From assembly GCF_023130475.1 (NCBI RefSeq), contig NZ_JAKHEX010000002.1, positions 1 to 64,000 on the forward strand: a DNA stretch of 64,000 bases, given 5' to 3'. Positions 1 through 32,304 of this stretch are shown here, piece by piece. A model generated the notes under the pieces. The model was not told the DNA's origin. It was given only the letters and a program-made list of their open reading frames with translations, and ran no database searches. The stretch comes from Aciditerrimonas ferrireducens (lineage in GTDB: Bacteria; Actinomycetota; Acidimicrobiia; Acidimicrobiales; UBA8190). A program made the position numbers and the translations under genes. The stretch's first letter is position 1; each line of letters starts with the position of its first letter.

Positions 1-1016
1 GCGGGCTCGACGGTCTGGAGGCGGTCGAAGACGCAGACGTCGGCCTGGTAGCCGGGCCCGAGGTGACCGAGGTGGGTGAAGCCGTGGTAGGCGGCCGGGT
101 TGGCGGTGGCGAGGACGAAGGCGTCGGTATCAGGCACGCCGTGGCGAATGGCGAGGCGGACGCAGTCGTTCATGTGGCCGAGCTCCACCAAGGTGGTGGG
201 CTCGCGGTCGTCGGTGCAGAGGGCCACGAGGTCGGTGCCGTGGCGGAGCACGGTGGGGATGAGAGCGGCCAGGTTCTGGCTGGCCGAGCCTTGGCGGACG
301 AAGACCCACATGCCCTTGGCCCGGCGTTCCTCGGCCTCGGCGAGGGTGGTGCACTCGTGGTCGGACTCGACCCCGGCGGCCAGGTAGGCGTCGAGCTGGG
401 GGCCGTGGAGGCCAGGGGCGTGGCCGTCGACCCGCCGGCGGCCGGCCCGGGCGATCTTGGCCCGGATGGTGGGGTCGCCGGCCACCACCCCGGGGAAGTC
501 CATGACCTCGGCGAGGCCGATGGCCCCGAGGTCCTCGAGGAGCACCCCGACCTCCTCGGGGCCGAGGCTGGCGCCGGGGCTCTCGAAGGGGGAGGCCGGG
601 ACGCAGCTGGAGGCGCAGATGCCGAAGGTGAAGGGCAGGCGGCGGGCCGCCTCGGCCAGCGCTGCCACCCCGGGGACCCCGGCGACGTTGGCGATCTCGT
701 GGGGGTCGGCGGCCACCGCCGTGGTGCCCCGGGGCAGGACGGTGGCCACGAACTGGTCCACCCAGAGCTTCGTGGACTCCAGGTGCATGTGGGCGTCGAT
801 GAGCCCGGGGGTGAGGGCCGCCCCGTCGACGTCGATGACCTCGGCGGCGTCCCGGGTGCCCCAGGCGCAGACCACGCCGTCGGCGATGGCCAGGTCGGTG
901 GGCACCCACTGGCGGGTGGCGCAGGCCAGCACCCGGCCGCCTCGCAGGAGGAGGTCGGCTGGCTGCTCGCCTCGGGCGACGGCCAGGGCCCGCTCGGATG
1001 CCGGGGGTCGGGCCAT
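1..1016 (-). CDS. ade: Adenine deaminase, N-terminal part (cut by window edge)
   Basis: This gene deaminates adenine to hypoxanthine and ammonia, feeding the xanthine dehydrogenase encoded upstream in the same operon. Its ATG at 1014-1016 overlaps the stop codon of add (ATGA). The first 338 residues are visible and the C-terminal part lies outside the window. The amidohydrolase metal motif DAHMHLE occurs near residue 70. It is followed by GTTAVAADPHEIANVAG, which is the family signature of AdeC-type adenine deaminases rather than generic amidohydrolases. A later DDREP stretch and the sequence ATANPAAYHG also fit. It is the last visible gene of a five-gene purine operon read right to left. Assignment is strong; the missing end prevents a check of the C-terminal domain. 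Confidence 0.9.
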   Translation of the reverse strand, partial: MARPPASERALAVARGEQPADLLLRGGRVLACATRQWVPTDLAIADGVVCAWGTRDAAEVIDVDGAALTPGLIDAHMHLESTKLWVDQFVATVLPRGTTAVAADPHEIANVAGVPGVAALAEAARRLPFTFGICASSCVPASPFESPGASLGPEEVGVLLEDLGAIGLAEVMDFPGVVAGDPTIRAKIARAGRRRVDGHAPGLHGPQLDAYLAAGVESDHECTTLAEAEERRAKGMWVFVRQGSASQNLAALIPTVLRHGTDLVALCTDDREPTTLVELGHMNDCVRLAIRHGVPDTDAFVLATANPAAYHGFTHLGHLGPGYQADVCVFDRLQTVEP

Positions 1017-2068
1017 CAGGCCCTGGCCTCGGCGTGGACCTGGTCCCAGGCTTCGAGGCGCCTGGCCAGGTGCTCTCGGGTGGCGGCGTCGCAGAAGGCG
1101 GCCCGGAGGCCGGCCCGCTGGGCCTCGGCCAGCCGGGGCAGCCCCCAGTGGGCGACGGCCGCGGCCCGGGCCAGCTCTTCGGGCAGGTCGATGCCGAAGG
1201 TCAGCGGGTCGTCGGTGCCGATGCTCAGGGGCACTCCGGCCCGGTCGAGGAGCGCCAGGGGGTGGTGTTCGAGGCTGCCGTAGAGCAGGTGGGCGTTGGA
1301 GGTGGGGCAGACCGAGAGGGTGATCGCCTCGGCGGCCAGGCGGGTCAGGAGGCCGGGGTCCTCGGCGGCCCGGACCCCGTGGTCGATGCGACGGACCCCG
1401 AGCTGCTCGAGGGCCGCCACCACCCCCTCGGGGCCCGAGGATTCCCCGGCGTGGGCGGTGACCCCGAGGCCGATGCGGCGGGCCTCGGCGAAGGCCTCGC
1501 CGAACACCGGGCGGTGGGCGCCGGGGGCCCGCTCGTCCCCGTCGACCCCGAGGCCCACCACCCGGGCAGGGCGCTCCCGGGCGAGCTCGGCGAGGACCTG
1601 GCGGACCTGGTCGTCGGGCTGGTCCCGGCGCAAGGAGACCACGAGGCGGCAATCAGCGGCGCCCTCGTCGGCCGCCCGGTCGAACCCGGCGCAGACCGCC
1701 GCCACGAGCCGGGGACGGGGCAGGCCGGTCCAGTGGGTCGGGTTGACCGTGACTTCGGCGTAGGCCACGCCGCTCGCCCCGAGGAAACGGGCGAAGCCGG
1801 CCGCCTGGTCGAGGGCCTGCTCCTCGGTCCGGACCAGGGAGCACCACCAGTCCAAGGCGGCCAGGAAGTCGGCCAGGTCCTCGGTGGCGAAGGCCCAGGC
1901 CACCCGCGCCTCGACCGCCGGTTCCCTCGCGGCCCGGGCCAGCTCGGCGACCCGCTTCGGCGAGAAACTGCCCTCGAGGTGGACGTGGAGCTCGACGGTC
2001 GGCAGGCCGAGGAGATCCTGGCGGGTCGGCGTCGGTGCGGGGTCAGGGTGGCCGCTGGTCGGGCTCAC
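1016..2068 (-). CDS. add: Adenosine deaminase
   Basis: Predicted zinc hydrolase of about 350 residues that converts adenosine to inosine. The HVHLEGS motif near residue 30 supplies the first zinc ligands. HAGE, SVCPTSN and IGTDDPLTF appear in the usual order for the adenosine/AMP deaminase family, including the catalytic Asp pair in TDDP. The GTG start at 2066-2068 overlaps the stop of the molybdenum subunit of xanthine dehydrogenase (GTGA), indicating translational coupling, and no better in-frame start exists downstream. Together with adenine deaminase it channels adenine compounds into hypoxanthine metabolism. An aminodeoxyfutalosine deaminase is possible by homology, but the purine operon context favours adenosine. 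Confidence 0.87.
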   Translation of the reverse strand: MSPTSGHPDPAPTPTRQDLLGLPTVELHVHLEGSFSPKRVAELARAAREPAVEARVAWAFATEDLADFLAALDWWCSLVRTEEQALDQAAGFARFLGASGVAYAEVTVNPTHWTGLPRPRLVAAVCAGFDRAADEGAADCRLVVSLRRDQPDDQVRQVLAELARERPARVVGLGVDGDERAPGAHRPVFGEAFAEARRIGLGVTAHAGESSGPEGVVAALEQLGVRRIDHGVRAAEDPGLLTRLAAEAITLSVCPTSNAHLLYGSLEHHPLALLDRAGVPLSIGTDDPLTFGIDLPEELARAAAVAHWGLPRLAEAQRAGLRAAFCDAATREHLARRLEAWDQVHAEARA

Positions 2069-4368
2069 GGCCGGGGGTCTCCGGGGGTGGCGAGGGCGAT
2101 GTCGGCGGGGCGGACCGGCACCCGGGTGAGGGGGAGGCCGGTGGCGGCCCGGATGGCGGCCACGACCGCCGGGGTGGAGGAGATCGTGGGGGGCTCGCCC
2201 ACCCCTTTCGCCCCGAAGGGGGCCCCGGGCTCGGGTTCCTCGACGAGGGCGGCGACGGCCACGTCGGGCATGTCGAGGGCGGTGGGGATGAGGTAGTCGG
2301 TGAACGAGGGGTTCCGGACCCGACCCTGGTCGAGGACGATCTCCTCCATGACCGCCAGGCCCACGCCCTGGGCGATGCCGCCCTCGATCTGGCCGAGGAC
2401 CTGGAGGGGGTTGAGGACCCGGCCGACGTCCTGGGCGGTGGCGATCTGGACCACCTTCACGAGGCCGAGGTCCAGGTCCACGTCGACCACGGCCCGGTGG
2501 GCGGCGAAGGCGAAGGCCACGTGGGCGTCCCCCTGGCCTCGCTCGTCGAGGGGCTCGGTCTGGCGGTGGTGGAAGGTGACGGTCTCCTCCAGGGGCCCCT
2601 CGGCGAGCAGCTCGGCGACCGAGAGCGCGTCGGCCCCCTCGAGGGCCTGGACCGCCCCTTCGGCGAGGACCAGGCGGCCCGGGTCGGTGCCGAGGCGGCG
2701 GGCAGCCCGCTCGAGGAGCCGGCCGGCCACCGCCCGGCAGGCCTCGGCCACCGCCCCGCCGGACATCCAGGTCTGGCGGCTGGCCGAGGTGGAGCCAGCC
2801 GAGCCGATGCGCGCGGTGCTGGGCGGGGCGAGGACCACCCGCTCGACACCGAGCTCCTCTTCGCAGATCTGGCGGGCCAGGGTCACGAACCCCTGGCCGA
2901 CCTCGGCGGCCGCGCAGGTCACGGTGGCCAGGGGGCCGTCTTCGGCGAGCTCCAGGCGGACCCTGGCCTCCGAGGCGTCGTCGAAGCCCTCGGAGTACAT
3001 GAGGTTCTTGTAGCCCACCGCGAAGCCCACTCCCCGGCGGACCCGGCTGCGGGTCGCCGTGCGGCCGGCTCCCCCGGGGAGGGCCACGTCGGGCAGGGCC
3101 TCGGGGCCCACCGCCGGGAGGGGCGCGCCAGCGGCCGCCTCGATGACTTGGGCGACCGGGGCGCTGCCCTCGATGCGCTGTCCGGTGATGAGGGTGTCGC
3201 CGTGGCGCAGGGCGTTGGCCAGGCGGAGCTGGACCGGGTCCATCCCGAGGGCCGCCGCGAGCTTGTCCATCTGGGCCTCGTAGGCGAAGCAGGCCTGGAC
3301 GGCCCCGAAGCCCCGCATGGCCCCGCAGGGCGGGTTGTTCGTCCGGACCACCCAGCCGTCGACGGTGGCGTTCGGCACCCGGTAGGGGCCGGTGGCGAAG
3401 GCGGTGGCGTTCGAGATGACGGCGGTCGACGAGGAGGCGTAGGCCCCGCCGTCGAGCAGGACCCGAGCGTCGACCCGGACGAGGCGGCCCTGGCGGTCCG
3501 CCTGGTGGCGGAGCCAGATGCGGGCCGGGTGGCGGTGCACGTGGGAGAAGAACGAGTCCTCCCGGGACAGGACCATCTTCACCGGCCGGCCGGTGGCCAG
3601 GGCGAGGAGGCAGAGGTGGACCTGGATGCTGACGTCCTCCCGGGCGCCGAAGGCCCCGCCGACCCCGGCCAGGTGGAGCCGGACCTTCTCGAGGGGCAGG
3701 CCCAGGCAGCGGGCCACCTGGTCCCGGTCGACGTGGAGCCACTGGGTGGCGATGTAGAGGTCCACGCCGCCGTCCTCGGCCGGCACGGCCAGGCCGGACT
3801 CGGGTCCCATGAAGGCCTGGTCCTGCATGCCGACCTCGTAGGTCCCCTCGACCACCACCTCGCCACGGGCCTCGGGGTCGCCGTGCTCGATGCGCAGGTG
3901 CCGGAAGACGTTGCCGTCGGGGTGGATGGGCGGGGCCGAGATGGCGTCCTCGGGGTCGACGAGGGGGTCCAGGGGCTCGTAGTCGACCAGGACCGCTGCG
4001 GCGGCCCGGCGGGCGGTCTCGGGGTGGTCGGCGGCGACGGCGACCACCGGCTCGCCCATGTAGCGGACCACGTCGGCGGCCAGGACCGGCTGGTCGGGGA
4101 TCTCGAGCCCGTAGGTCGGCGCCCCGGGCACGTCGGCAGCGGTCAGGACCGCCCGGACCCCGTCGATGGCCCAGGCCGGGCCGACGTCGAGACGGCGGAT
4201 GCGGGCCGAGGGGTGGGGGGAGCGCAGGACGTGGCCCCAGAGCATCCCCTCGGCAAAGAGGTCGGAGGAGAACTGGAACTGGCCCCGGACCTTGGGCACC
4301 CCGTCGGGTCGGGGGGCCGAGACCCCCACGCCCCGGGTGGCCCGACGGGGACGCTCGAGGACGGTCAC
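2065..4368 (-). CDS. pucD: Xanthine dehydrogenase, molybdopterin-binding subunit
   Basis: Large catalytic subunit (767 residues) of a three-subunit molybdenum hydroxylase oxidising hypoxanthine to xanthine and urate. The N-terminal hammerhead domain (about residues 10-140) is followed by two Moco-binding domains. GGAFG lies at residues 237-241, AMRGFG further on, and GVGEPP near residue 725 carries the presumed catalytic glutamate. It resembles PucD-type proteins more than CO dehydrogenases. The GTG start at 4366-4368 overlaps the stop of the Fe-S subunit gene. A longer open frame extends upstream but runs over the Fe-S gene. The order FAD, Fe-S, Mo subunit with GTGA overlaps and downstream adenine/adenosine deaminases supports a purine role. 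No XdhC-like insertion factor is visible here. Confidence 0.88.
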   Translation of the reverse strand: MTVLERPRRATRGVGVSAPRPDGVPKVRGQFQFSSDLFAEGMLWGHVLRSPHPSARIRRLDVGPAWAIDGVRAVLTAADVPGAPTYGLEIPDQPVLAADVVRYMGEPVVAVAADHPETARRAAAAVLVDYEPLDPLVDPEDAISAPPIHPDGNVFRHLRIEHGDPEARGEVVVEGTYEVGMQDQAFMGPESGLAVPAEDGGVDLYIATQWLHVDRDQVARCLGLPLEKVRLHLAGVGGAFGAREDVSIQVHLCLLALATGRPVKMVLSREDSFFSHVHRHPARIWLRHQADRQGRLVRVDARVLLDGGAYASSSTAVISNATAFATGPYRVPNATVDGWVVRTNNPPCGAMRGFGAVQACFAYEAQMDKLAAALGMDPVQLRLANALRHGDTLITGQRIEGSAPVAQVIEAAAGAPLPAVGPEALPDVALPGGAGRTATRSRVRRGVGFAVGYKNLMYSEGFDDASEARVRLELAEDGPLATVTCAAAEVGQGFVTLARQICEEELGVERVVLAPPSTARIGSAGSTSASRQTWMSGGAVAEACRAVAGRLLERAARRLGTDPGRLVLAEGAVQALEGADALSVAELLAEGPLEETVTFHHRQTEPLDERGQGDAHVAFAFAAHRAVVDVDLDLGLVKVVQIATAQDVGRVLNPLQVLGQIEGGIAQGVGLAVMEEIVLDQGRVRNPSFTDYLIPTALDMPDVAVAALVEEPEPGAPFGAKGVGEPPTISSTPAVVAAIRAATGLPLTRVPVRPADIALATPGDPRP

Positions 4369-4853
4369 CGGGTCACCGCCTGCTCGGCGAAGGCCCGGGC
4401 GGCCCGCTGGACGGCGTCGAGGATGCGGCCGTAGCCGGTGCAGCGGCAGAGGTTCCCGGAGATGGCCTCCCGGATCTCCCACTCACTCGGCTGGGGCACC
4501 CGGCGGAGCAGGTCGTGGACGGCCACGACGAGGCCGGGGGTGCAAAACCCGCACTGGACCGCCCCGGCCTCGACGAAGGCCCGCTGGATGGGGTCGAGGT
4601 CCTCGGGACCCTCGCCCCCGAGCCCCTCGACGGTGGTGATCTCGGCCCCCACGGCGCTCGCCGCCAGGACCAGGCAGGCGCAGACCAGGCGACCGTCAAG
4701 GAGGACCGAGCAGGAGCCGCACTCGCCTTGCTCGCAGGCGTTCTTCGAGCCGGGCAGGCCGAGGCGCTCCCGGAGGACGTAGAGGAGGCTCTCGCCGAGC
4801 CAGCTGCTGTCGACCTCCCGGGGGGTGCCGTTCACGACGAGCTCGTACCTCAC
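4365..4853 (-). CDS. pucE: Xanthine dehydrogenase, 2Fe-2S subunit
   Basis: Electron-transfer subunit (162 residues) with two [2Fe-2S] clusters. The plant-type ferredoxin cluster is made by Cys40, Cys45, Cys48 and Cys60 (spacing C-x4-C-x2-C-x11-C). The second, helical-bundle cluster is shown by QCGFCTPG and NLCRCTGY in the C-terminal half. Length and motif order match small subunits of bacterial xanthine dehydrogenases. The GTG start at 4851-4853 overlaps the FAD subunit stop, and the gene's own stop overlaps the next start, so all three subunits are translationally coupled and probably made in equal amounts. Confidence 0.92.
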   Translation of the reverse strand: MRYELVVNGTPREVDSSWLGESLLYVLRERLGLPGSKNACEQGECGSCSVLLDGRLVCACLVLAASAVGAEITTVEGLGGEGPEDLDPIQRAFVEAGAVQCGFCTPGLVVAVHDLLRRVPQPSEWEIREAISGNLCRCTGYGRILDAVQRAARAFAEQAVTR

Positions 4854-5755
4854 GCCGCCACCTCCCCGAGGGCCGCGCCGGGCGCCGGTCGGAGGAGCCG
4901 CTCGAGGGCCCGGGCGACGCAGACCCCGACGGCGTGGCGGCGGTAAGCGGCGCTGGAGCGGTGGTCGTCGATGGGCTGGGCGGCCTCGGCCACCAGGCGC
5001 CGGACCTCGGCCAGGGCGGCGTCGCCGTCGCGAAGCTCGAAGGCGGACGTGGCGGTGGGCCCGGTGCCCTGGGGCACGAGCTGCTCGGCCAGGTAGGCCT
5101 CGGCGGCCCGGGCCCGCAGGGGGGTGGGGCCGACCGAGCCGAGGGCGATGCGGACCTGGCCGGTCCCCGGGTCGAGGACGACGCAGACGCTGGCCACGGC
5201 GATGACCATGGCGTTGCGGGTCCCGACCTTCACGAACTCCTGGCGGCCGAAGGGGGCGGGGAACCGGACGGCGACGAGGAGCTCGTCGGGTCGGCGGGCG
5301 CAACGCTTGGGCCCGAGGAGGAACGCCTCGAGGGGAAGGGTCCGGGTCCCCTGGGCGCTGGCCAGCTCGACCTCGGCGTCGAGGGCGAGGAGCACCGGCA
5401 GGGTGTCGCCGGCGGGCGAGGCGGTCACGAGGTTGCCGCCGATCGTCCCGGCGTTGCGGATCTGGGGCGACCCGACGGTGCGGGCCGCCTGGGCGAGGGC
5501 TGGGGCCAGCTCGGCCAGGGGCGGTTCGAGGAGCTGGGTGTACGTGACCCCCGCCCCAAGCCGGAGCTGGCCGTCGCTCTGCTGCCACTGCCCGAGGGCG
5601 TCGATCCGGGACACCGCCAGGATCGCCTCGGGGCGTCGGCGAGCGAAGTTCACCTCGACCATGAAGTCGGTGCCCCCGGCGAGGACTTCGGGGGGCGGGT
5701 CGGCGGCGAGGGCCTGGAGGGCCTCGGGGACCGACCTGGCCACGGTGACCGTCAT
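4850..5755 (-). CDS. pucC: Xanthine dehydrogenase, FAD-binding subunit
   Basis: FAD subunit (301 residues) of the molybdenum hydroxylase. LAGGTDFM near residue 26 and the later TIGGNL motif are the two conserved flavin pyrophosphate-binding stretches of the CO dehydrogenase medium-chain family. The C-terminal third has the CO_deh_flav_C-type fold sequence. It is the first gene of the operon. The ATG at 5753-5755 lies 7 nt from a -10-like box with a perfect TTGACA 18 nt further upstream, so the transcript is probably leaderless; no Shine-Dalgarno sequence is seen. It diverges from the 5892 operon across a shared intergenic region holding a GlnR-type operator. Confidence 0.9.
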   Translation of the reverse strand: MTVTVARSVPEALQALAADPPPEVLAGGTDFMVEVNFARRRPEAILAVSRIDALGQWQQSDGQLRLGAGVTYTQLLEPPLAELAPALAQAARTVGSPQIRNAGTIGGNLVTASPAGDTLPVLLALDAEVELASAQGTRTLPLEAFLLGPKRCARRPDELLVAVRFPAPFGRQEFVKVGTRNAMVIAVASVCVVLDPGTGQVRIALGSVGPTPLRARAAEAYLAEQLVPQGTGPTATSAFELRDGDAALAEVRRLVAEAAQPIDDHRSSAAYRRHAVGVCVARALERLLRPAPGAALGEVAA

Positions 5756-5891: not shown

Positions 5892-6242
5892 ATGGCGCTG
5901 GACGCGGTCGGCAACGCAGTCGGCAACGCGGTTGGCACGGCCGAGGGGCAGCCGTCGGAGGCCCAGGGGGAAGCGGCGGCCGCCCCGTGGCTGCGGGCCG
6001 AGGCGACGGTCGAGCCCTTCGTGCCCGGTCAGCGGGGACCCCACGTCGAGGCCCTGGCCGAGGCGGCCCGTTCGGCCGGGGTGCGGCTCGTGGTGGGGCC
6101 CTTCGGGGACCTCGTGGAGGGGCCGGCCGAGGCGGTGGCCCGGGCGCTCGCCGAGGCCGTCCGGGCGGCCTTCGCCGCCGGGGCGAGCCGGCTGACGGTG
6201 CAGGTGACCCGGGAGGAGCCACCGGAGCCGACCGATGCCTGA
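5892..6242 (+). CDS. MTH1187/YkoF-type thiamine-binding family protein
   Basis: Small protein of 116 residues. After a low-complexity alanine- and glycine-rich start of about 30 residues, the rest reads like the MTH1187 (UPF0045) family. It has a beta strand AEATVEPFV, a conserved GPHV, a VVGPFGDLVEG strand and a final LTVQVTREE strand. Family members are small ferredoxin-fold proteins, some shown to bind thiamine or hydroxymethylpyrimidine; the actual ligand here is unknown. It heads the operon leading to the ammonia-lyase-like gene, directly behind the GlnR-type operator and a leaderless promoter. A role in binding a heterocyclic nitrogen compound is an inference from context only. Confidence 0.65.
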   Translation: MALDAVGNAVGNAVGTAEGQPSEAQGEAAAAPWLRAEATVEPFVPGQRGPHVEALAEAARSAGVRLVVGPFGDLVEGPAEAVARALAEAVRAAFAAGASRLTVQVTREEPPEPTDA

Positions 6243-6318: not shown

Positions 6319-7479
6319 GTGCTGGCCGTGACCCTGGGCCCACCGGACGACGCGCCGCTGCGGTTCCATCGGCGGCTGCCGGGGTACGAGCCGACGCCGT
6401 TGCGGGACCTGCCGGCCCTGGCCGAGGAGCTGGGGGTGGGGCAGGTGCTGCTGAAGGACGAGTCGAGCCGGCTGGGCCTGCCGTCGTTCAAGGCCCTCGG
6501 GGCCTCCTGGGCCCTCTACCGGACCCTCGAGGCCCACCTGGGCCGGAGCCTGGAGCCCTGGGCGAACCTCGGGGAGCTGGCCGAGCGGCTGGCGCCGGCG
6601 CTGCCCCTGCGGGTGGTGGCGGCCACCGACGGGAACCACGGCCGGGCGGTGGCGGCCATGGCCCGGCAGCTGGGCCTGGGCTGTCGGATCTTCGTCCCGC
6701 GGGGCACCGCGGCCGCCCGGATCGCGGCCATCGAGGGCGAGGGGGCGAGCTGCGAGGTGGTCGAGGGGGACTACGACGCCGCCGTGGCTCGTTCGGCGGC
6801 CGAGGCGGCCGAGGACCGAAGCGGCCGGACCCTGGTGGTCTCGGACACCTCCTGGCCGGGCTACGAGGACGTGCCGCGCTGGGTCAGCGAGGGTTACAGC
6901 ACCATGCTGGCCGAGGTCGACGAAGCCCTGGCTGCCCGGGGCGAGGGGCCGGTGGACCTGGTGGTGGTGCCCATGGGGGTCGGGGCCCTGGCCGCCGGGG
7001 TGGTGCGGCACTACCGGCGCCCCGGCCTGGCTGACCCGCCGGCCATCTTGGGGGTCGAGCCGGTCGGGGCTGACTGCGTGGGCCAGTCCCTGCGGGCCAA
7101 GGAGCGGCGGACCCTTCGGGACTACCGGCCATCAATCATGGCCGGGTTGAACTGTGAGACCCCGTCGCTGGTGGCCTGGCCGTTGGTGGCCGGGGGGCTG
7201 AGCGGGGCGGTGGCGGTGACCGACGAGGAGGCAGCTGCGGCCATGGTGGCCCTGGCCGCCCAGGGCGTGGTGGCCGGGGAGACGGGGGCGGCGGCCCTGG
7301 CCGGACTGCGGGTGGTGCTGGACGGCCCCGGGGCGGCCGAGCGCCGGCGCCTGTTGCGGGCCGGGCCGGGGCAGCGGGTCCTGCTGCTCTGCACCGAGGG
7401 GGCCACGGACCCCGAGGCCTACCGGCGGCTGGTGGGCCGGGACCCCGAGGCGGTGGCGGCGGGGGGCGCGGCGTCGTGA
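6319..7479 (+). CDS. Diaminopropionate ammonia-lyase-like PLP enzyme
   Basis: Fold-type II PLP enzyme of 386 residues from this start. LPGYEPTPL near residue 20 matches the GYxPTPL of YgeX-type 2,3-diaminopropionate ammonia-lyases. KDESSRLGLPSFKALG holds the PLP lysine, ATDGNHG the substrate/phosphate loop, and PMGVGALAAG the glycine-rich PLP phosphate loop. YgeX belongs to a urate degradation gene set in enterobacteria, and here the enzyme neighbours 8-oxoguanine deaminase and hydantoinase, so a purine-ring role is likely. Start: GTG 6319 has AGGA 7 nt upstream. The promoter, however, places a leaderless 5' end at 6274, where the in-frame codon is ATC; the 15 extra codons (IDRILVPNPLQQDPE) look protein-like. 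The true start is therefore open. The stop overlaps the next start (GTGA). Confidence 0.8.
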   Translation: MLAVTLGPPDDAPLRFHRRLPGYEPTPLRDLPALAEELGVGQVLLKDESSRLGLPSFKALGASWALYRTLEAHLGRSLEPWANLGELAERLAPALPLRVVAATDGNHGRAVAAMARQLGLGCRIFVPRGTAAARIAAIEGEGASCEVVEGDYDAAVARSAAEAAEDRSGRTLVVSDTSWPGYEDVPRWVSEGYSTMLAEVDEALAARGEGPVDLVVVPMGVGALAAGVVRHYRRPGLADPPAILGVEPVGADCVGQSLRAKERRTLRDYRPSIMAGLNCETPSLVAWPLVAGGLSGAVAVTDEEAAAAMVALAAQGVVAGETGAAALAGLRVVLDGPGAAERRRLLRAGPGQRVLLLCTEGATDPEAYRRLVGRDPEAVAAGGAAS

Positions 7480-8768
7480 GCCGGCTGGTGCTGCGGGGGG
7501 CCCGGGCCCCGGGGGACGTGGCGGTGCGGGACGGACGGATCGAGGCGGTGGGCCGAGTGCCCCCGGAGCCCGGGGACGAGGTGCTGGACTGCGAGGGCTG
7601 CCTGGTGACCCCGGGGCTGGTGAACACCCACCACCACCTCTACCAGTGGCTGACCCGGGGCCGGGCGGTGGACCAGGGGCTCTTCGGCTGGCTGGTGACC
7701 CTCTACCCGGTCTGGGCCCGCCTCGACCCCGAGGACGTGGCGGCGGCCGCCCGGGTGGGCCTGGCGGAGCTGGCCGTCTCGGGGGCGAGCACGGTGGCCG
7801 ACCACCACTACGTGGTGCCCGGCGGGGACGACTCGGTGTTCGACGCCCTGGCCGACGCGGCCCGGGCGGTGGGGGTCCGGCTGCACCTCTCCCGGGGATC
7901 CATGGACCTGGGCCAGTCCCACGGCGGCCTGCCCCCGGACCAGGTGGTGGAGGACACCGAGGCCATCCTGGCCTCGACCGAGGCGGTGGCCGGGCGCCTG
8001 CAGGACGGGGAGCGGGTCTTCGTGAACGTGGCCCCCTGCAGCCCGTTCTCGGTGTCGACCACCCTGCTCGAGGAGTCGGCCGCCTTGGCTCGGCGCCTGG
8101 GCCTGCGGCTGCACACCCACCTGGCGGAGACGAAGGACGAGGAGCGGGAGTGCCTGGCCCGCTTCGGGCGGCGGCCGGTGGCGGTGCTCGACGAGCTGGG
8201 CTGGGTGGGGCCCGACGTCTGGGTGGCCCACGGGGTGCACCTGGATGCCGGCGAGGTGGCCCGGCTGGGGGCGGCCCGGACGGGGGTGGCCCACTGCCCG
8301 ACCTCGAACGGCCGGTTGGGTTCGGGGATCTGCCCGGTGGTGCCCCTCCGGCGAGCAGGGGCGCCGGTGGGCCTGGGGGTGGACGGGGCAGCCTCGAACG
8401 AGTGCGGCCGGCTACAGCCCGAGCTGCGCCAGGCCCTCGTCCTGGCCCGCTTGGCCGCCGGCGACGCCGGGGCGCTGCAGCCCGCGGAGGTGCTGGCCAT
8501 GGCGACGGCGGAAGGGGCGGCCTGCCTGGGCCTGGAGGACGTGGGCCGACTCGAGCCCGGGGCCCGGGCCGACCTGGCGGTCTGGGACCTGGGCGACGCC
8601 TGGGACGTGGCCGACCCGGTGGCCGCCTTCGTGCTGGGACCCGAGCGGCCCTGCCGGACCCTGCTGGTGGGCGGCGAGGTGGTGGTGGAGGGCGGGGAAC
8701 CCACCCGCGTGGACCTCGGGGCTGCCCGGGCGGAGCTCGCTCGGCGGGCCCGGCGGCTGTGGCCATGA
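7476..8768 (+). CDS. 8-oxoguanine deaminase
   Basis: Zinc amidohydrolase of 430 residues in the AtzB/TrzN-like group. It converts 8-oxoguanine to urate, or a related aminopurine to its oxo form. The metal ligands are in VNTHHHLYQ (about residue 50), HTHLAE and AHGVHL, with the final Asp in GVDGAASNE. The stretches FGWLVTLYPVWARL, TVADHHY, LSRGSMDL and APCSPFSVST are very close to characterised 8-oxoguanine deaminases and distinguish it from guanine deaminase. The GTG start overlaps the stop of the upstream PLP enzyme, and the stop overlaps the ATG of the hydantoinase. Product urate would join that of xanthine dehydrogenase. Confidence 0.88.
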   Translation: MSRLVLRGARAPGDVAVRDGRIEAVGRVPPEPGDEVLDCEGCLVTPGLVNTHHHLYQWLTRGRAVDQGLFGWLVTLYPVWARLDPEDVAAAARVGLAELAVSGASTVADHHYVVPGGDDSVFDALADAARAVGVRLHLSRGSMDLGQSHGGLPPDQVVEDTEAILASTEAVAGRLQDGERVFVNVAPCSPFSVSTTLLEESAALARRLGLRLHTHLAETKDEERECLARFGRRPVAVLDELGWVGPDVWVAHGVHLDAGEVARLGAARTGVAHCPTSNGRLGSGICPVVPLRRAGAPVGLGVDGAASNECGRLQPELRQALVLARLAAGDAGALQPAEVLAMATAEGAACLGLEDVGRLEPGARADLAVWDLGDAWDVADPVAAFVLGPERPCRTLLVGGEVVVEGGEPTRVDLGAARAELARRARRLWP

Positions 8769-10267
8769 GCACCGGCACTGGGAGCACCGGCACTGGGGGT
8801 CCTGGCGTGGGCGTGTCGGGAGGACCGGTGACGCTGGTGGTGGAAGGCGGCCAGGTGGTGACCCCCGAGGGGGTGGTGGCGGCCGACGTGGTGGTGGCCG
8901 GGGAGCAGGTGGCCGGGCTGGTCGCCCCCGGGCAGGCCGGCGTGCTGGCCGGACCGGGGGCGACTCGGCTGGACGCCCGGGGGATGCTGGTGCTACCCGG
9001 CGGCGTGGACGTGCACACCCACCTGGACATGCCCCTGGGCGAGCTGCGGAGCGCGGACGACTTCGCCAGTGGCACCGAGGCCGCGCTGGTGGGGGGGACG
9101 ACGACGGTGGTGGACTTCTGCGTGCAGCCCCGGGGGCAGAGCCCGCTGGCCGGCCTCGCCGAGTGGCGGGAGCTGGCCGAGGGCCGGGCGGTGTGCGACT
9201 ACGGCTTCCACGCGATCCTCTCGGACCCGAGCGAGGCGGCCCTGGCCGACCTGCCGGCGCTGGTGGCCGAGGGGGTGAGCAGCGTGAAGGTCTTCACCGC
9301 CTACCCGGGGCGGCTCTACGCCGACGACGGGCGGATCCTGCGGACCATGCAGGAGGCGGCAGCCTTGGGCATGGTCTGCATGGTGCACGCCGAGAACGGG
9401 CTGGCCATCGACGTGCTGGTGGCCCAGGCCCTGGCCCGGGGCGAGCTGGGGCCCGCGGCCCACGGGACGACCCGGCCCTCGGTGCTGGAAGGCGAGGCCA
9501 CCCAGCGGGCGATCTGCCTCGCCGAGGTGGCCCGCTGCCCGCTCTACGTCGTGCACCTGTCGGCGGCTGAGGCGCTGGCCGCGGTGCGCCGGGCCCGGCG
9601 ACGGGGCCAGCCGGTGTTCGCCGAGACCTGCCCGCAGTACCTGTTCCTGGACGAGGGGTTGCTGGGGGGGCCCGGCGGGGAGCGGTTCGTCTGCTCGCCG
9701 CCGCTGCGCTCCACGCGGCACCAGGAGGCCCTGTGGCGGGGACTGGCCCGAGGGGACCTCCAGACGGTGGCCACCGACCACTGCCCGTTCTGCCTGGCCG
9801 AACGGGCCCCGTGGGTCGGGGTGGACTTCTCGAAGATCCCGAACGGCCTGCCGGGCATCGAGCACCGGCTGGACCTTTTGCACCAAGGGGTGGTGGAAGG
9901 CCGGCTGACCTTGGAGCGGATGGTGGAGCTGGCGGCGAGCACGCCGGCCCGGCTCTTCGGGCTCTGGCCGAAGAAGGGCTCGCTGCTGCCCGGGGCCGAC
10001 GCCGACCTGGTGGTCTACGACCCGAGGTCCCGCCAGGAGCTGTCGGCCAGTCGGCACCACATGGCGGTGGACTACTCGGCTTACGAGGGCATGGTGGTGA
10101 CCGGCGTCGTGCGCAGCGTGGTGCAGCGGGGGGAGGTGGTGGTGCGCGACGGGCGGTTCGTGGGCCGGCCCGGCCGGGGACGGTACCTCCCGCGGCCCGC
10201 GGGGGTGCTGGGCTGGCCGACGGGGACCCTGGCCGATGAGGGCGTGGAGGCCGACAAGGAGGCCTGA
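8765..10267 (+). CDS. D-hydantoinase / dihydropyrimidinase
   Basis: Amidohydrolase of 500 residues that opens cyclic imides such as dihydropyrimidines or hydantoins. DVHTHLD near residue 80 gives the first metal pair. SSVKVFTAYPG carries the lysine that is carbamylated in this family. HAENG, VVHLSAAEAL and ATDHCPF supply further ligands. The ATG at 8765 overlaps the previous stop (ATGA). The first 25 codons include an imperfectly repeated STGTG stretch encoded by two copies of a 15-nt repeat (8768-8797) and are probably disordered. Neighbours suggest an allantoin-like or urate-derived ring as substrate rather than uracil only, but this is inference. Confidence 0.85.
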   Translation: MSTGTGSTGTGGPGVGVSGGPVTLVVEGGQVVTPEGVVAADVVVAGEQVAGLVAPGQAGVLAGPGATRLDARGMLVLPGGVDVHTHLDMPLGELRSADDFASGTEAALVGGTTTVVDFCVQPRGQSPLAGLAEWRELAEGRAVCDYGFHAILSDPSEAALADLPALVAEGVSSVKVFTAYPGRLYADDGRILRTMQEAAALGMVCMVHAENGLAIDVLVAQALARGELGPAAHGTTRPSVLEGEATQRAICLAEVARCPLYVVHLSAAEALAAVRRARRRGQPVFAETCPQYLFLDEGLLGGPGGERFVCSPPLRSTRHQEALWRGLARGDLQTVATDHCPFCLAERAPWVGVDFSKIPNGLPGIEHRLDLLHQGVVEGRLTLERMVELAASTPARLFGLWPKKGSLLPGADADLVVYDPRSRQELSASRHHMAVDYSAYEGMVVTGVVRSVVQRGEVVVRDGRFVGRPGRGRYLPRPAGVLGWPTGTLADEGVEADKEA

Positions 10268-11304
10268 TGGTCGAGGGACCCGTCGACTGGCTGGCGAACG
10301 ACGATCGCCGGCTGCGGCGAGCCTGGCACCCGGTGGCGAGGGTGGCGGAGCTCGGGGAGCGGCCACTTCGGCGCTGGCTGCTGGGGGAGCCCTGGGTGCT
10401 GGTCCGGCTGGGCGGCGGGGTCCGGGCGTTCCTGGACCGCTGCCCCCACCGGCGGGTGCCCTTGTCGCTCGGGGCGGTGGAGGACGGCCGGGTGCTGCGC
10501 TGCGCCTACCACGGCTGGTGCTTCGACGGCGAGGGCCGCTGCGTGGAGATCCCGGCTCTCGGGCCTGGCGCCGCCCTGCCACCCCAGGCCCGGCTGGTGC
10601 CGGCGGCGGCGGTGGCCGTCCACCTGGGTCTGGTCTGGGTGGCCCCGGAGGCACCCCGGGGATCGCTGCCGGTCGTGCCGGAGGCCGAGGACCCCGGGTT
10701 CGAGCGGGGGGACCTGCCGGTGCGGGAAGCCCGGTGCTCGGCGGGGATGCTGCTCGACAACTTCCTGGACTTCGCCCACTTCCCCTTCGTCCACCGGGGC
10801 ACCTTCGGAGCCGAGGAGGAGCGGGAGGTCGAGCCCTACGCACCGCAGGTCGAGGGGAACGTGGTGCGGTTGCGCCTCGAGCACTGGTTCGCCAACCGGG
10901 AGGACCCGGCGGTGGCTCGAGGGGAGCGGCCCCTGCGGCAGCGACGGGTCATGTCCTACGAGTACACGCCGCCGTTCTTCGCCCGGCTGCGGCTGGACTT
11001 CGTGGACGCCGGGGGCACGAACACTATCGTGCTGGCCGTCCAACCCGAGACCGCCGAGCGCTGCCGGATCTACTCGTCGCTGTTCCGGGACGACCTCGGT
11101 GGGGACGAGGCCGCCATGGCCGAGGCGGTGGCCTACGAGCAGCGGATCCTGGAGGAGGACCTGGCGGTCCAAGAGGCCCTGGACGACCTGCGCTTGTCCT
11201 TGACGCTGCCGGTCGAGGTCCACACGCGGGCCGACCGGATCACCGTCGAGCTGCGCCGGGCCCTGTCCCGTTTCCTGGGCGACGGCGGCGCCGGGCCCGG
11301 CTGA
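10267..11304 (+). CDS. Rieske non-heme iron oxygenase
   Basis: Oxygenase alpha-subunit-like protein of 345 residues. The Rieske [2Fe-2S] motif is CPHR (about residue 59) and CAYHGW (about residue 79). The mononuclear iron site is suggested by DNFLDFAHFPFVH near residue 165. The overall shape resembles VanA/pheophorbide a oxygenase-type demethylases or hydroxylases. The ATG overlaps the hydantoinase stop by one base, so it is the last gene of the purine operon. No reductase or ferredoxin is encoded nearby, and electrons must come from elsewhere. A Rieske oxygenase is not part of the known 8-oxoguanine/hydantoinase/diaminopropionate gene sets, so its substrate is unknown. Confidence 0.83.
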   Translation: MVEGPVDWLANDDRRLRRAWHPVARVAELGERPLRRWLLGEPWVLVRLGGGVRAFLDRCPHRRVPLSLGAVEDGRVLRCAYHGWCFDGEGRCVEIPALGPGAALPPQARLVPAAAVAVHLGLVWVAPEAPRGSLPVVPEAEDPGFERGDLPVREARCSAGMLLDNFLDFAHFPFVHRGTFGAEEEREVEPYAPQVEGNVVRLRLEHWFANREDPAVARGERPLRQRRVMSYEYTPPFFARLRLDFVDAGGTNTIVLAVQPETAERCRIYSSLFRDDLGGDEAAMAEAVAYEQRILEEDLAVQEALDDLRLSLTLPVEVHTRADRITVELRRALSRFLGDGGAGPG

Positions 11305-11321
11305 GCACGAGGCGGCCGGGC
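11295..11321. terminator. Hairpin between convergent genes
   Basis: GCCCGGC (11295-11301) can pair with GCCGGGC (11315-11321) across the 17-nt gap between the Rieske gene and the convergent lipoprotein gene. There is no T-run, so this is at best a weak bidirectional terminator. Confidence 0.3.
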
Positions 11322-12533
11322 TCAGGACCCGCCGGTGGTGGCGGTGCCGGCGCTGAACTGGTACTCGCTGGCGAACGGCCAGGGTTCGGTGACGGTCGCC
11401 CCGCTCTGGTTGGTGAAGGTGACCGCGGTCGGCAGGTTGCTCGGGCTGATCTGGACCTTGCTGGCGACGATGTAGCCGGCCCGAGCGGCGTTGCTCTGTG
11501 GCCAGAGGAGGGAGAAGGGGGTGGGGGTGCGGGGGAGGTGGTGGGGCAGGTGCTCGATGACCGCCACCCCGACGGCCGCGGCCCGATCGGCGGCCAGGAC
11601 CCCCTGGTAGGCGTTCGGGTACCAGGGGCTGTCGGAGATGCCCCGGACGACCAACCAGGGCACGCCGAGCTGGGCGTTCGCGTAGGCGAAGCCCATGCCC
11701 TCGTTCTCCCCGGCGTCGCTCTGGTAGAGGGCGTTCTGGATCTCCTGGTCGGCGAGCGGCTCGGTCCACTGGTTGGCGCTCCCGATGACCCCGACGAGCA
11801 GGTGGTTCGTGAGGGTGCCGGTCGCGCTGGTGTTCCCGGTGGCATCGGCAACGGAGATGGTGCCGAGTGCCGGGGCGTGGGCCAGGGCGTCGTCCACCAG
11901 GGCCTCGGGGGCGGCGAGGTCCTCGACGTAGACGTACCGCTTCGTGGTGGTCGAGGGACCAGCGCCGTAGGTGGCGGCGTCCTTCGGGGTGGGCCCGACG
12001 GCCCCGTACCCGCCGACGATGGCGCCCTCGGTGTCGCTGCGCTGGGTGACCTCCATCTCGACGCCGGTGTAGGGCGAGAGGTAGCCGCGGTCGTGGAAGT
12101 GGATGGAGGACTTGTCGACCACCGCTCCGCTGACCACGACGTCCCCGACGTTGACCGCCGGGTTCCGCGAGCCGGCGGTGCCCGTGAGGATGGCGGCCCG
12201 GACGTGGAAGGTGAGGTCCATGAGGGTGGTGGCGAGCTCCGCGGCGTACTCCTTCTCCCCCGAGCGGACGTCGACCACCGGCACCCCGTCGATGGTGCCG
12301 AGGAAGAACCGGTAGCCGTCGACGATCCGACTGCCAGTGACGTGCATGGCGGCCAGGATCGGGGCCTGCTCCATGCCCATGGCGTTCACGATGCCGACCA
12401 GGGGGGTGCCGGGGCCGAGCCGGGCGGCCGCGGCGCTGGCCGAGGGGCTGGCGCCGCAGGCGGCGAGGCCGGCGCCAGCACCCAGGAGACCGAGGCCGGC
12501 GAGGAGGGACGGGACAAGACGAGTACGGGACAC
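11322..12533 (-). CDS. Lipoprotein of the MTA/SAH nucleosidase (PNP/UDP) family
   Basis: Predicted exported lipoprotein of 403 residues. An N-terminal signal peptide ends in the lipobox LAAC with the lipidated cysteine at position 26. The mature part belongs to the nucleoside phosphorylase/nucleosidase superfamily: LVGIVNAMGMEQAPIL, LTGTAGSRNP and NVGDVVVSG are characteristic beta strands and loops. NEGMGFAYANAQLGVPWLVVRGISD matches the catalytic region with the ribose-binding glutamate and aspartate. An enzyme of this type outside the membrane would release bases from nucleosides. Its neighbour on the same strand is an NCS1 nucleobase permease, which fits extracellular salvage. The distance to the permease is 93 nt, so they are probably cotranscribed. 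Confidence 0.78.
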   Translation of the reverse strand: MSRTRLVPSLLAGLGLLGAGAGLAACGASPSASAAAARLGPGTPLVGIVNAMGMEQAPILAAMHVTGSRIVDGYRFFLGTIDGVPVVDVRSGEKEYAAELATTLMDLTFHVRAAILTGTAGSRNPAVNVGDVVVSGAVVDKSSIHFHDRGYLSPYTGVEMEVTQRSDTEGAIVGGYGAVGPTPKDAATYGAGPSTTTKRYVYVEDLAAPEALVDDALAHAPALGTISVADATGNTSATGTLTNHLLVGVIGSANQWTEPLADQEIQNALYQSDAGENEGMGFAYANAQLGVPWLVVRGISDSPWYPNAYQGVLAADRAAAVGVAVIEHLPHHLPRTPTPFSLLWPQSNAARAGYIVASKVQISPSNLPTAVTFTNQSGATVTEPWPFASEYQFSAGTATTGGS

Positions 12534-12626
12534 GAGGTCTCCCTTCGGGGTGGGGCGGTCGGCGTGGGTGGGACGAGGTACGGCTCGCGAGGCCTGCCTT
12601 CCCGGGACCCCCAGGAGCCGAGACGC

Positions 12627-14126
12627 TCAGGAGGCGGCCTGGCCCGCGCCGACTCCGGGCAGGCTGCCGCCCAGGGGCAGGGTGGCCTCGGCCGGAACGG
12701 AACGGAAGGAGAGGAGCCAGTAGGCGATGCCGCCGACGAGCATGCCGATGACCCAGCTGAAGTCGGCCCCGTTCGTGGCGTTGGAGAGCGGCCCGGTGTA
12801 GGAGGGAACGTAGAAGGCGGCGTCGATCCACATCATGGCCGCGGCCATGCCGAGGAACAGGGAGACGATGGCCTTCCAGTTCACGCCGCCGTTGCGCCAG
12901 TAGGTGCCGCCCCGCTCGGCGAAGAGCGCCTGGCGGTCGTAGCGGCCCCGGCGGAGCAGGTAGTCCACGAAGACGATGGCGAACCAGGGCGCGAGCCAGA
13001 CGACGATGTAGTCGAGGAATCCGGAGAGGTCGGTGTAGAAGTTGCCCTTGAAGATGACGAGGGCGGTGACCGCACCGGCCACGATGGTGTCGATGATGAC
13101 CGCACCCCAGCGCTTCACGGGGACCCCGAGGGCCTGGAGGGTGACCCCCGAGGAGTAGAGGTCCAGGCTGTTGATGGCGAAGATCTGGGGCAAGGCCAGG
13201 ATGAGGAACGGCCAGAAGAACCAGCTGGCGAAGGACGCCGGCAGGCCGGTCACCGCGGTGGCCTTGGGGCTCACGATGTAGGCGGCGGCGCCGAGGAGCT
13301 CGAGGAGGATCGAGGGGATCGCCGCCCCGAGGGTGGCGGCCCAGAGGGTCTTGGCCTTGGAGGTCTGGCGGGGCAGGTAGCGGGAGTAGTCGTTGCCGTT
13401 CTCCGTCCAGCCCAACCCGCCGGCCGAGACCAGCAGGACCACGGCGGTCGTCCAGATCTCCCACGTGGCGCTCTTGTGGTACGTGCCGAGGTGGACGTGG
13501 GGGATGACCAGGGCGGCCATGATGGCGAAGACGACGATGAAGACGAAGGAGAGGTAGCGGAGAAGCTTCGTGATGGTGGCGTGGCCGAGGAACGGGGCGA
13601 TGAACTGGACGGCCACGGCGAAGAGGATGAGCCCGATCTTGATCCCGGTCCCGGCCGAGACCCCTTCGTGGGAGAGCATGGCCTCGACGACCAGGACCAC
13701 GAGGACCAGTCCCTCGACCTCGAAGCCCACCTGGGTGATCCAGTTGAAGAGCGAGGGCACGCGGTTCCCGTTGATGCCGAAGGGGGCCCTGCTGACCCCG
13801 AAGGCGGTGGTGCCGGCCTCGGGGCCCTGGATGGAGGCCATGCCGAGCAGGACGTAGAAGACGTTGCCGACCAGGATGGCGATGACCGCCTGGGTGAAGG
13901 AGAGGCCGAAGGAGACGATGAGGGCCCCGTAGACGAGGAACTCGACGTTCCAGATGGCCCCGGCCCAGAGCCAGAAGAGGTCCGAGGGCCGCATGGGCCG
14001 CTGGTCGTCGGGGATGAGCTCGATCCCCCGGCTCTCGACCTTGAAGGCCTGGTAGGCGTCCTCCGAGGGGGCGCTGCCGCCGCCCACCGTCGTCCCCACC
14101 GCCGCCGAGGCAGCGTCACTGGCCAT
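12627..14126 (-). CDS. NCS1-family nucleobase permease
   Basis: Integral membrane transporter of 499 residues with about 12 hydrophobic segments, of the purine-cytosine permease family (nucleobases, allantoin, hydantoin, thiamine). SDLFWLWAGAIWN near residue 40 and GLGWTENGNDYSRYLP in the middle match conserved loops of this family. The ATG at 14124-14126 is preceded by a strong AAGGAGGGG Shine-Dalgarno sequence. A longer open frame reaches 14390, but the ribosome site and the family N-terminus support this start. A promoter lies about 320 nt upstream, leaving an unusually long leader. The GlnR-type operator and the neighbouring nucleosidase suggest nitrogen-controlled import of bases. The exact substrate cannot be read from the sequence. 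Confidence 0.88.
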   Translation of the reverse strand: MASDAASAAVGTTVGGGSAPSEDAYQAFKVESRGIELIPDDQRPMRPSDLFWLWAGAIWNVEFLVYGALIVSFGLSFTQAVIAILVGNVFYVLLGMASIQGPEAGTTAFGVSRAPFGINGNRVPSLFNWITQVGFEVEGLVLVVLVVEAMLSHEGVSAGTGIKIGLILFAVAVQFIAPFLGHATITKLLRYLSFVFIVVFAIMAALVIPHVHLGTYHKSATWEIWTTAVVLLVSAGGLGWTENGNDYSRYLPRQTSKAKTLWAATLGAAIPSILLELLGAAAYIVSPKATAVTGLPASFASWFFWPFLILALPQIFAINSLDLYSSGVTLQALGVPVKRWGAVIIDTIVAGAVTALVIFKGNFYTDLSGFLDYIVVWLAPWFAIVFVDYLLRRGRYDRQALFAERGGTYWRNGGVNWKAIVSLFLGMAAAMMWIDAAFYVPSYTGPLSNATNGADFSWVIGMLVGGIAYWLLSFRSVPAEATLPLGGSLPGVGAGQAAS

Positions 14127-14452
14127 GGATCGTCCCCTCCTTCGTCGGTCCTCCGGGTCCACTCGGGCGCCAGCCGCCCCCAGTCGGCGCACCGTAGTCG
14201 GTCGTGGTGATGCGGGGGCGGGCTCCGGGGACGGCCCCTGGCCTTCGAGGCCGGTGACGCAGCGCCCCGGGAGAGCGAAGGAGCGGGGAGGACGCCGACG
14301 ACGACCACCGGGCCCAAGCCGGCTCGGCGGCGCTCGACTCACCAGAACGGTCCTGGTGCACCGTTCCCCCTCCCCCTGGCCCCTGGCCACCGACTGGCAG
14401 GGGCGAGCACCGGCCGGCTGTGGGCAGCTGACCGGCGACCCTCCTGCGCCGC
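14127..14452 (-). other. Long untranslated leader of the NCS1 permease
   Basis: About 320 nt separate the predicted promoter from the permease start. No known riboswitch class was recognised. At 14340-14366 two hairpins exclude each other: GAACGGT with ACCGTTC, and CACCAG with CTGGTG, where each hairpin uses the other's stem as loop. This could be an RNA switch or chance. Confidence 0.35.
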
Positions 14453-14481
14453 ACCGTACGCCCTGTGCAACAAACTGTCAA
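14453..14481 (-). promoter_or_regulatory. Promoter of the NCS1 permease
   Basis: On the minus strand TTGACA (14476-14481) is followed after 17 nt by TACGGT (14453-14458). The -35 begins TTGACAGTTTGTTG, identical over 13 nt to the promoter at 6239. Confidence 0.6.
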
Positions 14482-14512
14482 GGATTGCACCCCCTCACCC
14501 TCGCAGGGCCGT

Positions 14513-14539
14513 GTTTCGAACGGGTGAACGGGGGATGAA
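14513..14539 (-). promoter_or_regulatory. GlnR-type operator upstream of the NCS1 permease
   Basis: On the minus strand TTCAT, TTCAC and GAAAC (low-coordinate ends 14535, 14524, 14513) follow at 11-nt steps. The layout equals the cyanase operator at 23056. It lies about 31 nt upstream of the permease -35. It could alternatively be read as a PhoP-type GTTCA direct repeat. Confidence 0.5.
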
Positions 14540-32253: not shown

Positions 32254-32304
32254 GGTGCACCTCCGAGAGCGAGGGCGGCTGGGACCGCCGGCTGGACGTT
32301 TCCT

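What the first reader, a model, noticed from the sequence alone, without database searches (positions are those of the whole stretch)
6319..11304. Purine-ring operon combining ammonia-lyase, 8-oxoguanine deaminase, hydantoinase and a Rieske oxygenase
The known enterobacterial and gut urate route uses YgeX, SsnA, HyuA and YgfK-type reductase genes. Here the first enzymes are represented, but a Rieske oxygenase closes the operon and a molybdenum xanthine dehydrogenase diverges from it. This may be an oxygen-dependent variant of the diaminopropionate route. Urate oxidase and allantoinase genes are not seen in the window.
Basis: partly seen in the sequence, partly recalled or inferred. Interest (0 to 1): 0.65.

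Follow-up and report, generated by a model that had tools for sequence, protein, structure and literature searches.

The report
Feeder half of reductive urate-breakdown island
This oxygen-respiring actinobacterium carries the recently described "anaerobic" reductive route for breaking down uric acid, apparently run on the cofactor F420, and the Rieske oxygenase next to it looks like an added tool for trimming purines rather than a replacement for the missing reductase.

Summary
Window 6319-11304 (+) is a tightly overlapping four-gene operon: diaminopropionate ammonia-lyase (YgeX type), 8-oxoguanine deaminase, hydantoinase and a VanA-type Rieske oxygenase. It lies opposite adenine deaminase, adenosine deaminase and a PucD-type xanthine dehydrogenase.

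The reading is only partly right. The deaminase is not SsnA. The supposedly missing genes are next door: contig C19 ends with the exact 99 bases that begin this contig, inside adenine deaminase, and carries UacY-like, YgeY, XdhD, true SsnA and an F420-type luciferase-like reductase. Together they make a near-complete reductive urate pathway, with no uricase, HIU hydrolase or OHCU decarboxylase found (genome 85% complete). In relatives the same island is contiguous, with or without the Rieske gene, so the Rieske does not stand in for the reductase.

Rieske relatives recur beside purine genes (34 of 66 loci; 0 of 20 arbitrary windows). Their closest folds act on purine-like substrates: saxitoxin hydroxylases and methylxanthine demethylases. 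I therefore read it as a peripheral purine demethylase or hydroxylase; its substrate is unknown.

The route was tied to obligate or facultative anaerobes; here it sits in a cytochrome-oxidase-bearing actinobacterium. The F420-type reductase was noted before only in Chloroflexota. New variant of a known kind.

The parts
3..1016 (-). Adenine deaminase (ade), N-terminal part; continues off the contig into contig C19 (C-terminal 267 aa at C19:32252-33055, -)
   Evidence: TIGR01178 3.8e-90 partial; exact 99-base overlap between C19 end and window start; both halves align to one full ADE of relative G049, 80% and 66% identity
1016..2068 (-). Adenosine deaminase (add)
   Evidence: TIGR01430 227 bits > cutoff 216.6
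2065..4368 (-). Xanthine dehydrogenase molybdenum subunit, PucD type
   Evidence: TIGR03196 928 bits > cutoff 784
4365..4853 (-). Xanthine dehydrogenase 2Fe-2S subunit
   Evidence: TIGR03198 / NF043084, 166 and 160 bits, below cutoffs; position and order
4850..5755 (-). Xanthine dehydrogenase FAD subunit
   Evidence: Pfam FAD_binding_5 and CO_deh_flav_C; NF043083 180 bits
5892..6242 (+). Small Thiamine_BP-family (MTH1187/YkoF-like) protein, conserved member of the island in several relatives, role unknown
   Evidence: PF01910 26.2 bits, cutoff 24.9; found beside DAPAL/XDH or elsewhere in the island in L111, L113, L114, L116, L120 and in purine loci L038, L129
6319..7479 (+). 2,3-diaminopropionate ammonia-lyase (YgeX equivalent): last step, diaminopropionate to pyruvate and ammonia
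   Evidence: NF006058 329 bits > 276; 34% identity to E. coli YgeX; PDB 5ygr 5e-56
7476..8768 (+). 8-oxoguanine deaminase (feeds urate); not SsnA
   Evidence: NF006055 548 bits > 532; SsnA models 126 and 122 bits, cutoffs 444 and 455.5; PDB 3hpa/7ww2
8765..10267 (+). Dihydropyrimidinase/D-hydantoinase family protein (HyuA equivalent): ureidomethyl-hydantoin to diureidopropionate
   Evidence: TIGR02033 526 bits > 393; allantoinase TIGR03178 259 < 358; 42% identity to E. coli HyuA over 457 aa
10267..11304 (+). VanA-type Rieske oxygenase, proposed purine N-demethylase or hydroxylase; Rieske ligands C59/H61/C79/H82 and iron ligands H171/H176/D298 all conserved
   Evidence: Pfam Rieske + VanA_C; motif residues invariant in 12- and 25-row alignments; model pLDDT 92.8, best folds GxtA/SxtT and NdmA/NdmB
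11322..12533 (-). Nucleoside phosphorylase superfamily protein (PNP_UDP_1)
   Evidence: Pfam 6.4e-17
12627..14126 (-). NCS1-type purine/cytosine permease, recurrent neighbour of the island
   Evidence: Pfam Transp_cyt_pur 4.3e-51; 76-86% identical permeases beside the island in G049, G103, G060, G154, G039, G086

Best explanation
The operon is one half of a purine-catabolism island that runs the reductive urate pathway. Nucleobases enter through the permease. Adenosine deaminase, adenine deaminase, nucleoside phosphorylase, xanthine dehydrogenase and 8-oxoguanine deaminase turn them into urate. On the adjoining contig C19, XdhD would reduce urate to yanthine (2,8-dioxopurine), an F420-type luciferase-like reductase would dearomatise yanthine in place of YgfK/UacX, and SsnA would open the ring to ureidomethyl-hydantoin. 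The window's hydantoinase opens the hydantoin, the UacY-like amidohydrolase and YgeY remove the two ureido groups, and the window's ammonia-lyase splits diaminopropionate into pyruvate and ammonia. The Rieske oxygenase is an accessory, O2-dependent entry enzyme on a modified purine: most likely N-demethylation, otherwise hydroxylation. Shown here: gene presence, families, linkage and conservation. Inferred: every reaction in this organism, the F420 dependence of the reductase, and the Rieske substrate class.
For: Families over curated cutoffs for DAPAL, 8-oxoguanine deaminase and hydantoinase and for YgeY (TIGR03526, 411 > 321.5). SsnA on C19 is 71% identical to the SsnA of G185 and 34% to E. 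coli SsnA. XdhD is a fused FeS+Mo protein, TIGR03311 818 bits, just under its cutoff of 830. LLM best matches F420-dependent Mer, structure 1z69 6e-43, and the genome has F420 synthesis, CofH over cutoff. C19 and the window share an exact 99-base end. The same island is contiguous in G060 and G049 and conserved in G103 and G092. DAPAL and SsnA co-occur: 26 of 28 DAPAL genomes have SsnA against 50 of 170 without DAPAL. Uricase, HIU hydrolase and OHCU decarboxylase are not found. Rieske: purine genes within 9 kb in 34 of 66 superclade loci against 0 of 20 arbitrary windows; a second Rieske in the G185, G002 and Aquihabitans clusters is NdmA/NdmB-like (248 bits); the model's nearest folds act on saxitoxin or methylxanthine. 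Pathway chemistry: PMC12507026.
Against: The LLM reductase is under every NCBIfam cutoff, so its substrate rests on gene order and on a remark about Chloroflexota in PMC12507026. SsnA and XdhD fall short of their curated cutoffs. The electron donor of XdhD is unknown: no YgfM-like FAD subunit lies next to it. 23 of the 35 closest Rieske loci have no panel purine gene nearby, so the Rieske substrate could lie outside purines. No NAD_binding_1 reductase was found for it. The genome is 85% complete, so absences are weak.
Confidence: 0.78

Rival explanations
1. One reading: the Rieske oxygenase replaces the reductase and dearomatises urate with O2, giving an oxygen-dependent diaminopropionate route.
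For: Rieske is the last, translationally coupled gene of the operon; its nearest folds act on purine-like rings; uricase is absent; cytochrome oxidase is present.
Against: SsnA, XdhD, YgeY, a UacY-like gene and an F420-type reductase are on the adjoining contig. The island exists without the Rieske gene in G049, G092, G103, G060. The Rieske family also occurs in genomes without SsnA or DAPAL. Reaching diaminopropionate needs C4 at the CH2 level, that is net reduction, not oxidation (pathway chemistry, PMC12507026).
Confidence: 0.05
2. The Rieske enzyme is an HpxD-like hypoxanthine/xanthine hydroxylase: an O2-dependent alternative to xanthine dehydrogenase.
For: HpxDE of Klebsiella is a Rieske pair proposed for hypoxanthine oxidation, and HpxD-like Rieske genes follow xanthine/urate riboswitches (PMC7373994). 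Purine neighbourhoods recur.
Against: A xanthine dehydrogenase is encoded next door, which would make it redundant; no HpxE-type reductase was found (PF00175 none); no HpxD sequence was on hand to place it in the tree; no riboswitch was found in the 15 related loci scanned.
Confidence: 0.2
3. Separate functions: the four genes are co-transcribed, but the Rieske acts on an unrelated compound and joined the operon recently.
For: 23 of 35 nearest Rieske loci show no panel purine gene and share almost no conserved neighbour; the three closest operons lack it.
Against: Independent purine contexts across the superclade (34 of 66), adjacent purine permeases (L036, L037, L152, L154, L157), purine-type ABC operons (L160-L162, L164, L166, L168) and the SsnA-LLM-XdhD clusters of G185/G002.
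Confidence: 0.2

Closest known systems
Reductive urate pathway of E. coli / C. difficile / C. sporogenes (XdhD, YgfK or UacX, SsnA, HyuA, YgeW or UacY, YgeY, YgeX; PMC12507026, PMC12990295)
   Same: YgeX, HyuA, YgeY, SsnA, XdhD and a UacY-type PF07969 amidohydrolase are all present in one island
   Different: YgfK/UacX replaced by an F420-type LLM reductase; coupled to PucD-type XDH, 8-oxoguanine deaminase and a Rieske oxygenase; host encodes cytochrome c oxidase
F420 variant noted in Chloroflexota (PMC12507026, Fig. 3c)
   Same: LLM-family putative F420-dependent reductase next to SsnA
   Different: Here in Actinomycetota, with complete downstream genes and two alternative ureidase sets (YgeY+UacY-like, or M20+CN_hydrolase)
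NdmA/NdmB methylxanthine N-demethylases (P. putida CBB5)
   Same: VanA-type Rieske fold, full-length match (TM 0.79-0.81), purine context; an actual NdmA/B-like Rieske sits in sister clusters
   Different: Only 24-26% identity; Glu instead of Asn/Gln at the NdmA Asn282 position; no NdmD reductase seen
SxtT / GxtA saxitoxin hydroxylases
   Same: Closest fold (TM 0.82-0.84) and closest profile match; substrate is a reduced purine-like tricycle
   Different: 26% identity; cyanobacterial biosynthesis rather than catabolism

Membership tests
Reductive urate degradation pathway | YgeX diaminopropionate ammonia-lyase | tested here: met
   NF006058 over cutoff
Reductive urate degradation pathway | SsnA aminohydrolase | tested here: inconclusive
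   C19 gene: best matches are the SsnA models (251 and 242 bits) but below cutoffs 444/455.5; 34% identity to E. coli SsnA; the protein lacks the N-terminal part of the model
Reductive urate degradation pathway | XdhD-type fused FeS-Mo urate reductase, distinct from XdhA | tested here: inconclusive
   Fused FeS+Mo protein, TIGR03311 818 vs cutoff 830; about equal similarity to E. coli XdhA and XdhD; Glu606 column not reliably aligned
Reductive urate degradation pathway | HyuA hydantoinase | tested here: met
   TIGR02033 526 > 393; 42% to E. coli HyuA
Reductive urate degradation pathway | YgeY hydrolase | tested here: met
   TIGR03526 411 > 321.5
Reductive urate degradation pathway | YgeW or UacY for the other ureido group | tested here: inconclusive
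   PF07969 protein divergent from ygeY, same Pfam as UacY; not compared with C. difficile UacY itself
Reductive urate degradation pathway | YgfK or UacX reductase | tested here: not met
   Neither is in the island; an LLM F420-type protein holds the position, as reported for Chloroflexota. So: variant, not the E. coli form
Reductive urate degradation pathway | Converts urate to pyruvate | not testable with these tools
   Needs growth or enzyme assays
SsnA (for window 7476-8768) | Scores above SsnA cutoffs | tested here: not met
   126 and 122 bits, cutoffs 444 and 455.5; 8-oxoguanine deaminase 548 > 532
Oxidative uricase/allantoin pathway | Uricase, HIU hydrolase, OHCU decarboxylase | tested here: not met
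   PF01014, PF00576, PF09349: no match in the own genome, 85% complete
NdmA/NdmB N-demethylase (for the Rieske) | Substrate-contact pair Asn282/Phe286 (NdmA) or Gln/Leu (NdmB) | tested here: not met
   Glu in the window protein and in 51 of 69 superclade sequences, Gln in 18; the G185-type second Rieske does have Gln/Leu
NdmA/NdmB N-demethylase (for the Rieske) | VanA-type Rieske fold with intact metal ligands | tested here: met
HpxD hypoxanthine oxygenase (for the Rieske) | Orthology to Klebsiella HpxD | not tested
   No HpxD sequence was on hand

The most novel reading that the evidence does not exclude
Aerobic Actinomycetota use a hybrid purine route: Rieske and other non-haem iron oxygenases (TauD/PhyH/2OG types in sister loci) strip methyl groups from damaged or modified purines with O2, and the urate is then degraded by an F420H2-driven reductive pathway previously thought confined to anaerobes. 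The window's Rieske would be a new purine-demethylase class that recognises guanine-like substrates through the conserved Glu.
Probability: 0.3. Interest if true: 0.68.

Novelty: new variant of a known kind. Interest (0 to 1): 0.5.

Why it matters
The reductive urate pathway, worked out in 2025 in gut bacteria, is described as restricted to obligate or facultative anaerobes (PMC12990295). Finding its genes in actinobacterial genomes that also encode cytochrome oxidase, xanthine dehydrogenase and O2-dependent oxygenases suggests that environmental aerobes bypass uricase by reduction. It turns a brief remark about an F420 reductase in Chloroflexota into a testable enzyme assignment, with a clean gene set, alternative ureidases and at least one cultured relative carrying the purine-Rieske part (Aquihabitans sp. 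G128).

Tried and rejected
SsnA identity for 7476-8768 tested and rejected. Allantoinase reading of the hydantoinase rejected. Rieske as reductase substitute rejected. Riboswitch control of the island looked for and not found (only Guanidine-I elsewhere in the window). XdhD Glu606 test (PMC12507026) tried but that column does not align reliably, so not used. Conserved neighbours of the soil Rieske orphans looked for: only weak, scattered sharing. Reductase partner for the Rieske: PF00175 finds none. CofD (PF01933) found but judged unspecific because it also matches E. coli; CofH used instead. A literature search for a published Rieske/diaminopropionate link found nothing.
Full report
WHAT IS THERE. 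The window is contig C12 of a 2.65-Mb, 43-contig genome, 85% complete; its relatives with names are mostly Acidimicrobiia (L162 is the same contig as G131, an Acidimicrobiaceae genome). A small Thiamine_BP-family gene (5892-6242) precedes them. On the opposite strand lie the FAD, FeS and Mo subunits of a PucD-type xanthine dehydrogenase, adenosine deaminase and the first 338 codons of adenine deaminase, cut by the contig end. After the operon come a phosphorylase-family gene and an NCS1 purine permease on the - strand.

NOT SsnA. The deaminase passes the 8-oxoguanine deaminase cutoff and falls far below both SsnA models. A search with the SsnA of relative G185 found the genome's real SsnA on contig C19, 71% identical.

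THE MISSING HALF. C19 carries, in one overlapping run on its - strand (locus L110): HTH_22 regulator 7723-8163, LLM reductase 8160-9194, SsnA 9234-10280, fused FeS-Mo XdhD 10277-12871, YgeY 12868-14166, and divergently a PF07969 amidohydrolase 14247-15995 of the UacY kind. YgeY passes both curated cutoffs; XdhD is just below its cutoff. The last 99 bases of C19 equal the first 99 bases of C12 exactly, and the two contig ends carry the two parts of one adenine deaminase gene in the right order and orientation. The two loci are therefore almost certainly one island of about 29 kb. In G060 all these genes lie within about 17 kb of each other; in G049 they are contiguous on one contig; G092 and G103 show the same order on two contigs.

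PATHWAY. Li et al. 2025 (PMC12507026) showed urate to yanthine (XdhD), dearomatisation (YgfK/UacX), ring opening to ureidomethyl-hydantoin (SsnA), diureidopropionate (HyuA), loss of two ureido groups (YgeW/UacY, YgeY), pyruvate (YgeX). Every step except YgfK/UacX has a candidate here, and an LLM protein whose best solved relatives are F420-dependent Mer enzymes sits in the YgfK place. The same paper mentions an F420 LLM in Chloroflexota clusters. The genome makes F420 (CofH over cutoff) and has a cytochrome oxidase subunit I. Uricase, HIU hydrolase and OHCU decarboxylase give no match. Among 198 genomes of the order, 26 of 28 with this ammonia-lyase have SsnA, against 50 of 170 without it (Fisher 1e-10, not corrected for relatedness). 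A close LLM homologue is in 28 of 396 sampled genomes of the phylum; in the six LLM loci read from that sample, SsnA is adjacent or close in all. A second form of the island replaces YgeY/UacY by an M20 hydrolase plus a CN_hydrolase beside XdhD (L116, L117, L120, L123, L124, L128). L252 has a YgeW-like gene.

THE RIESKE GENE. It is intact: C59-H61/C79-H82 Rieske ligands and H171/H176/D298 iron ligands are conserved. The AlphaFold model (pLDDT 92.8) is nearest to GxtA/SxtT (TM 0.82-0.84) and NdmA/NdmB (0.79-0.81), then dicamba and guaiacol demethylases; the profile ranks the same two groups on top. Relatives in G185 and G002 sit in clusters with LLM, SsnA, XdhD, ammonia-lyase and nucleoside hydrolase; others adjoin purine permeases or purine-type ABC transporters, ADA, ADE, XDH or 8-oxoguanine deaminase. 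By one criterion, 34 of 66 superclade loci have a purine gene within 9 kb, against none of 20 arbitrary 18-kb windows from relatives; related loci are counted separately, so this is not an independent sample. The second Rieske in G185/G002/Aquihabitans clusters groups with NdmA in the tree (100/96), matches NdmA with 248 bits, and has the Gln/Leu pair of the NdmA 'QL mutant' structures (that this pair is the NdmB type is my own knowledge). The window's protein has Glu at that site, as do 51 of 69 superclade members. I read it as an accessory purine oxygenase, probably a demethylase, with substrate open.

CAVEATS. The closest Rieske sequences (50-58%) in soil genomes mostly lack purine neighbours (23 of 35). 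The three genomes with the most similar ammonia-lyase lack the Rieske gene at 1e-30. No reductase partner was found. No reaction was tested.

VERDICT. Observation confirmed; 'oxygen-dependent variant of the diaminopropionate route' not supported as stated; a reductive F420-type urate island with an accessory Rieske oxygenase is the better account.

Noticed in passing
window 27860-32418 (-): A Guanidine-I riboswitch (RF00442, 71.8 bits) lies upstream of an arginase-family gene (31090-32253) that overlaps a second, unrelated Rieske/Ring_hydroxyl_A oxygenase (29975-31093) and is followed by an amino-acid permease (27860-29368). A Rieske oxygenase under a guanidine riboswitch suggests oxidation of an alkylguanidine before guanidine hydrolysis and urease.
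   Followed up: partly
window 33169-34873 (+): Urease alpha (ureC) is split over two reading frames: N-terminal part in the frame of 32914-33765, C-terminal 436 aa from 33563. Either a sequence error or a broken gene.
   Followed up: partly
window 5892-6242; L111, L113, L114, L116, L120, L129, L038: A small Thiamine_BP (MTH1187/YkoF-like) protein is a recurrent, unexplained member of these purine islands.
   Followed up: partly
L116, L117, L120, L123, L124, L128: Alternative ureidase pair: an M20 hydrolase and a CN_hydrolase beside XdhD in place of YgeY and the UacY-like gene.
   Followed up: partly
L122:5807-7000 (+): A YgfK-like protein (38% to E. coli YgfK) next to ammonia-lyase, SsnA and XdhD where no LLM reductase was seen: both reductase types may occur in one order.
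   Followed up: no
L035, L040, L038, L159, L170, L176: Non-haem iron dioxygenases (TauD, 2OG-Fe(II), PhyH) recur beside the purine Rieske genes.
   Followed up: no
L032, L036, L046, L047: Arginase-family genes (30-38% to the window's guanidine-operon enzyme) lie next to or near the purine-type Rieske gene.
   Followed up: no
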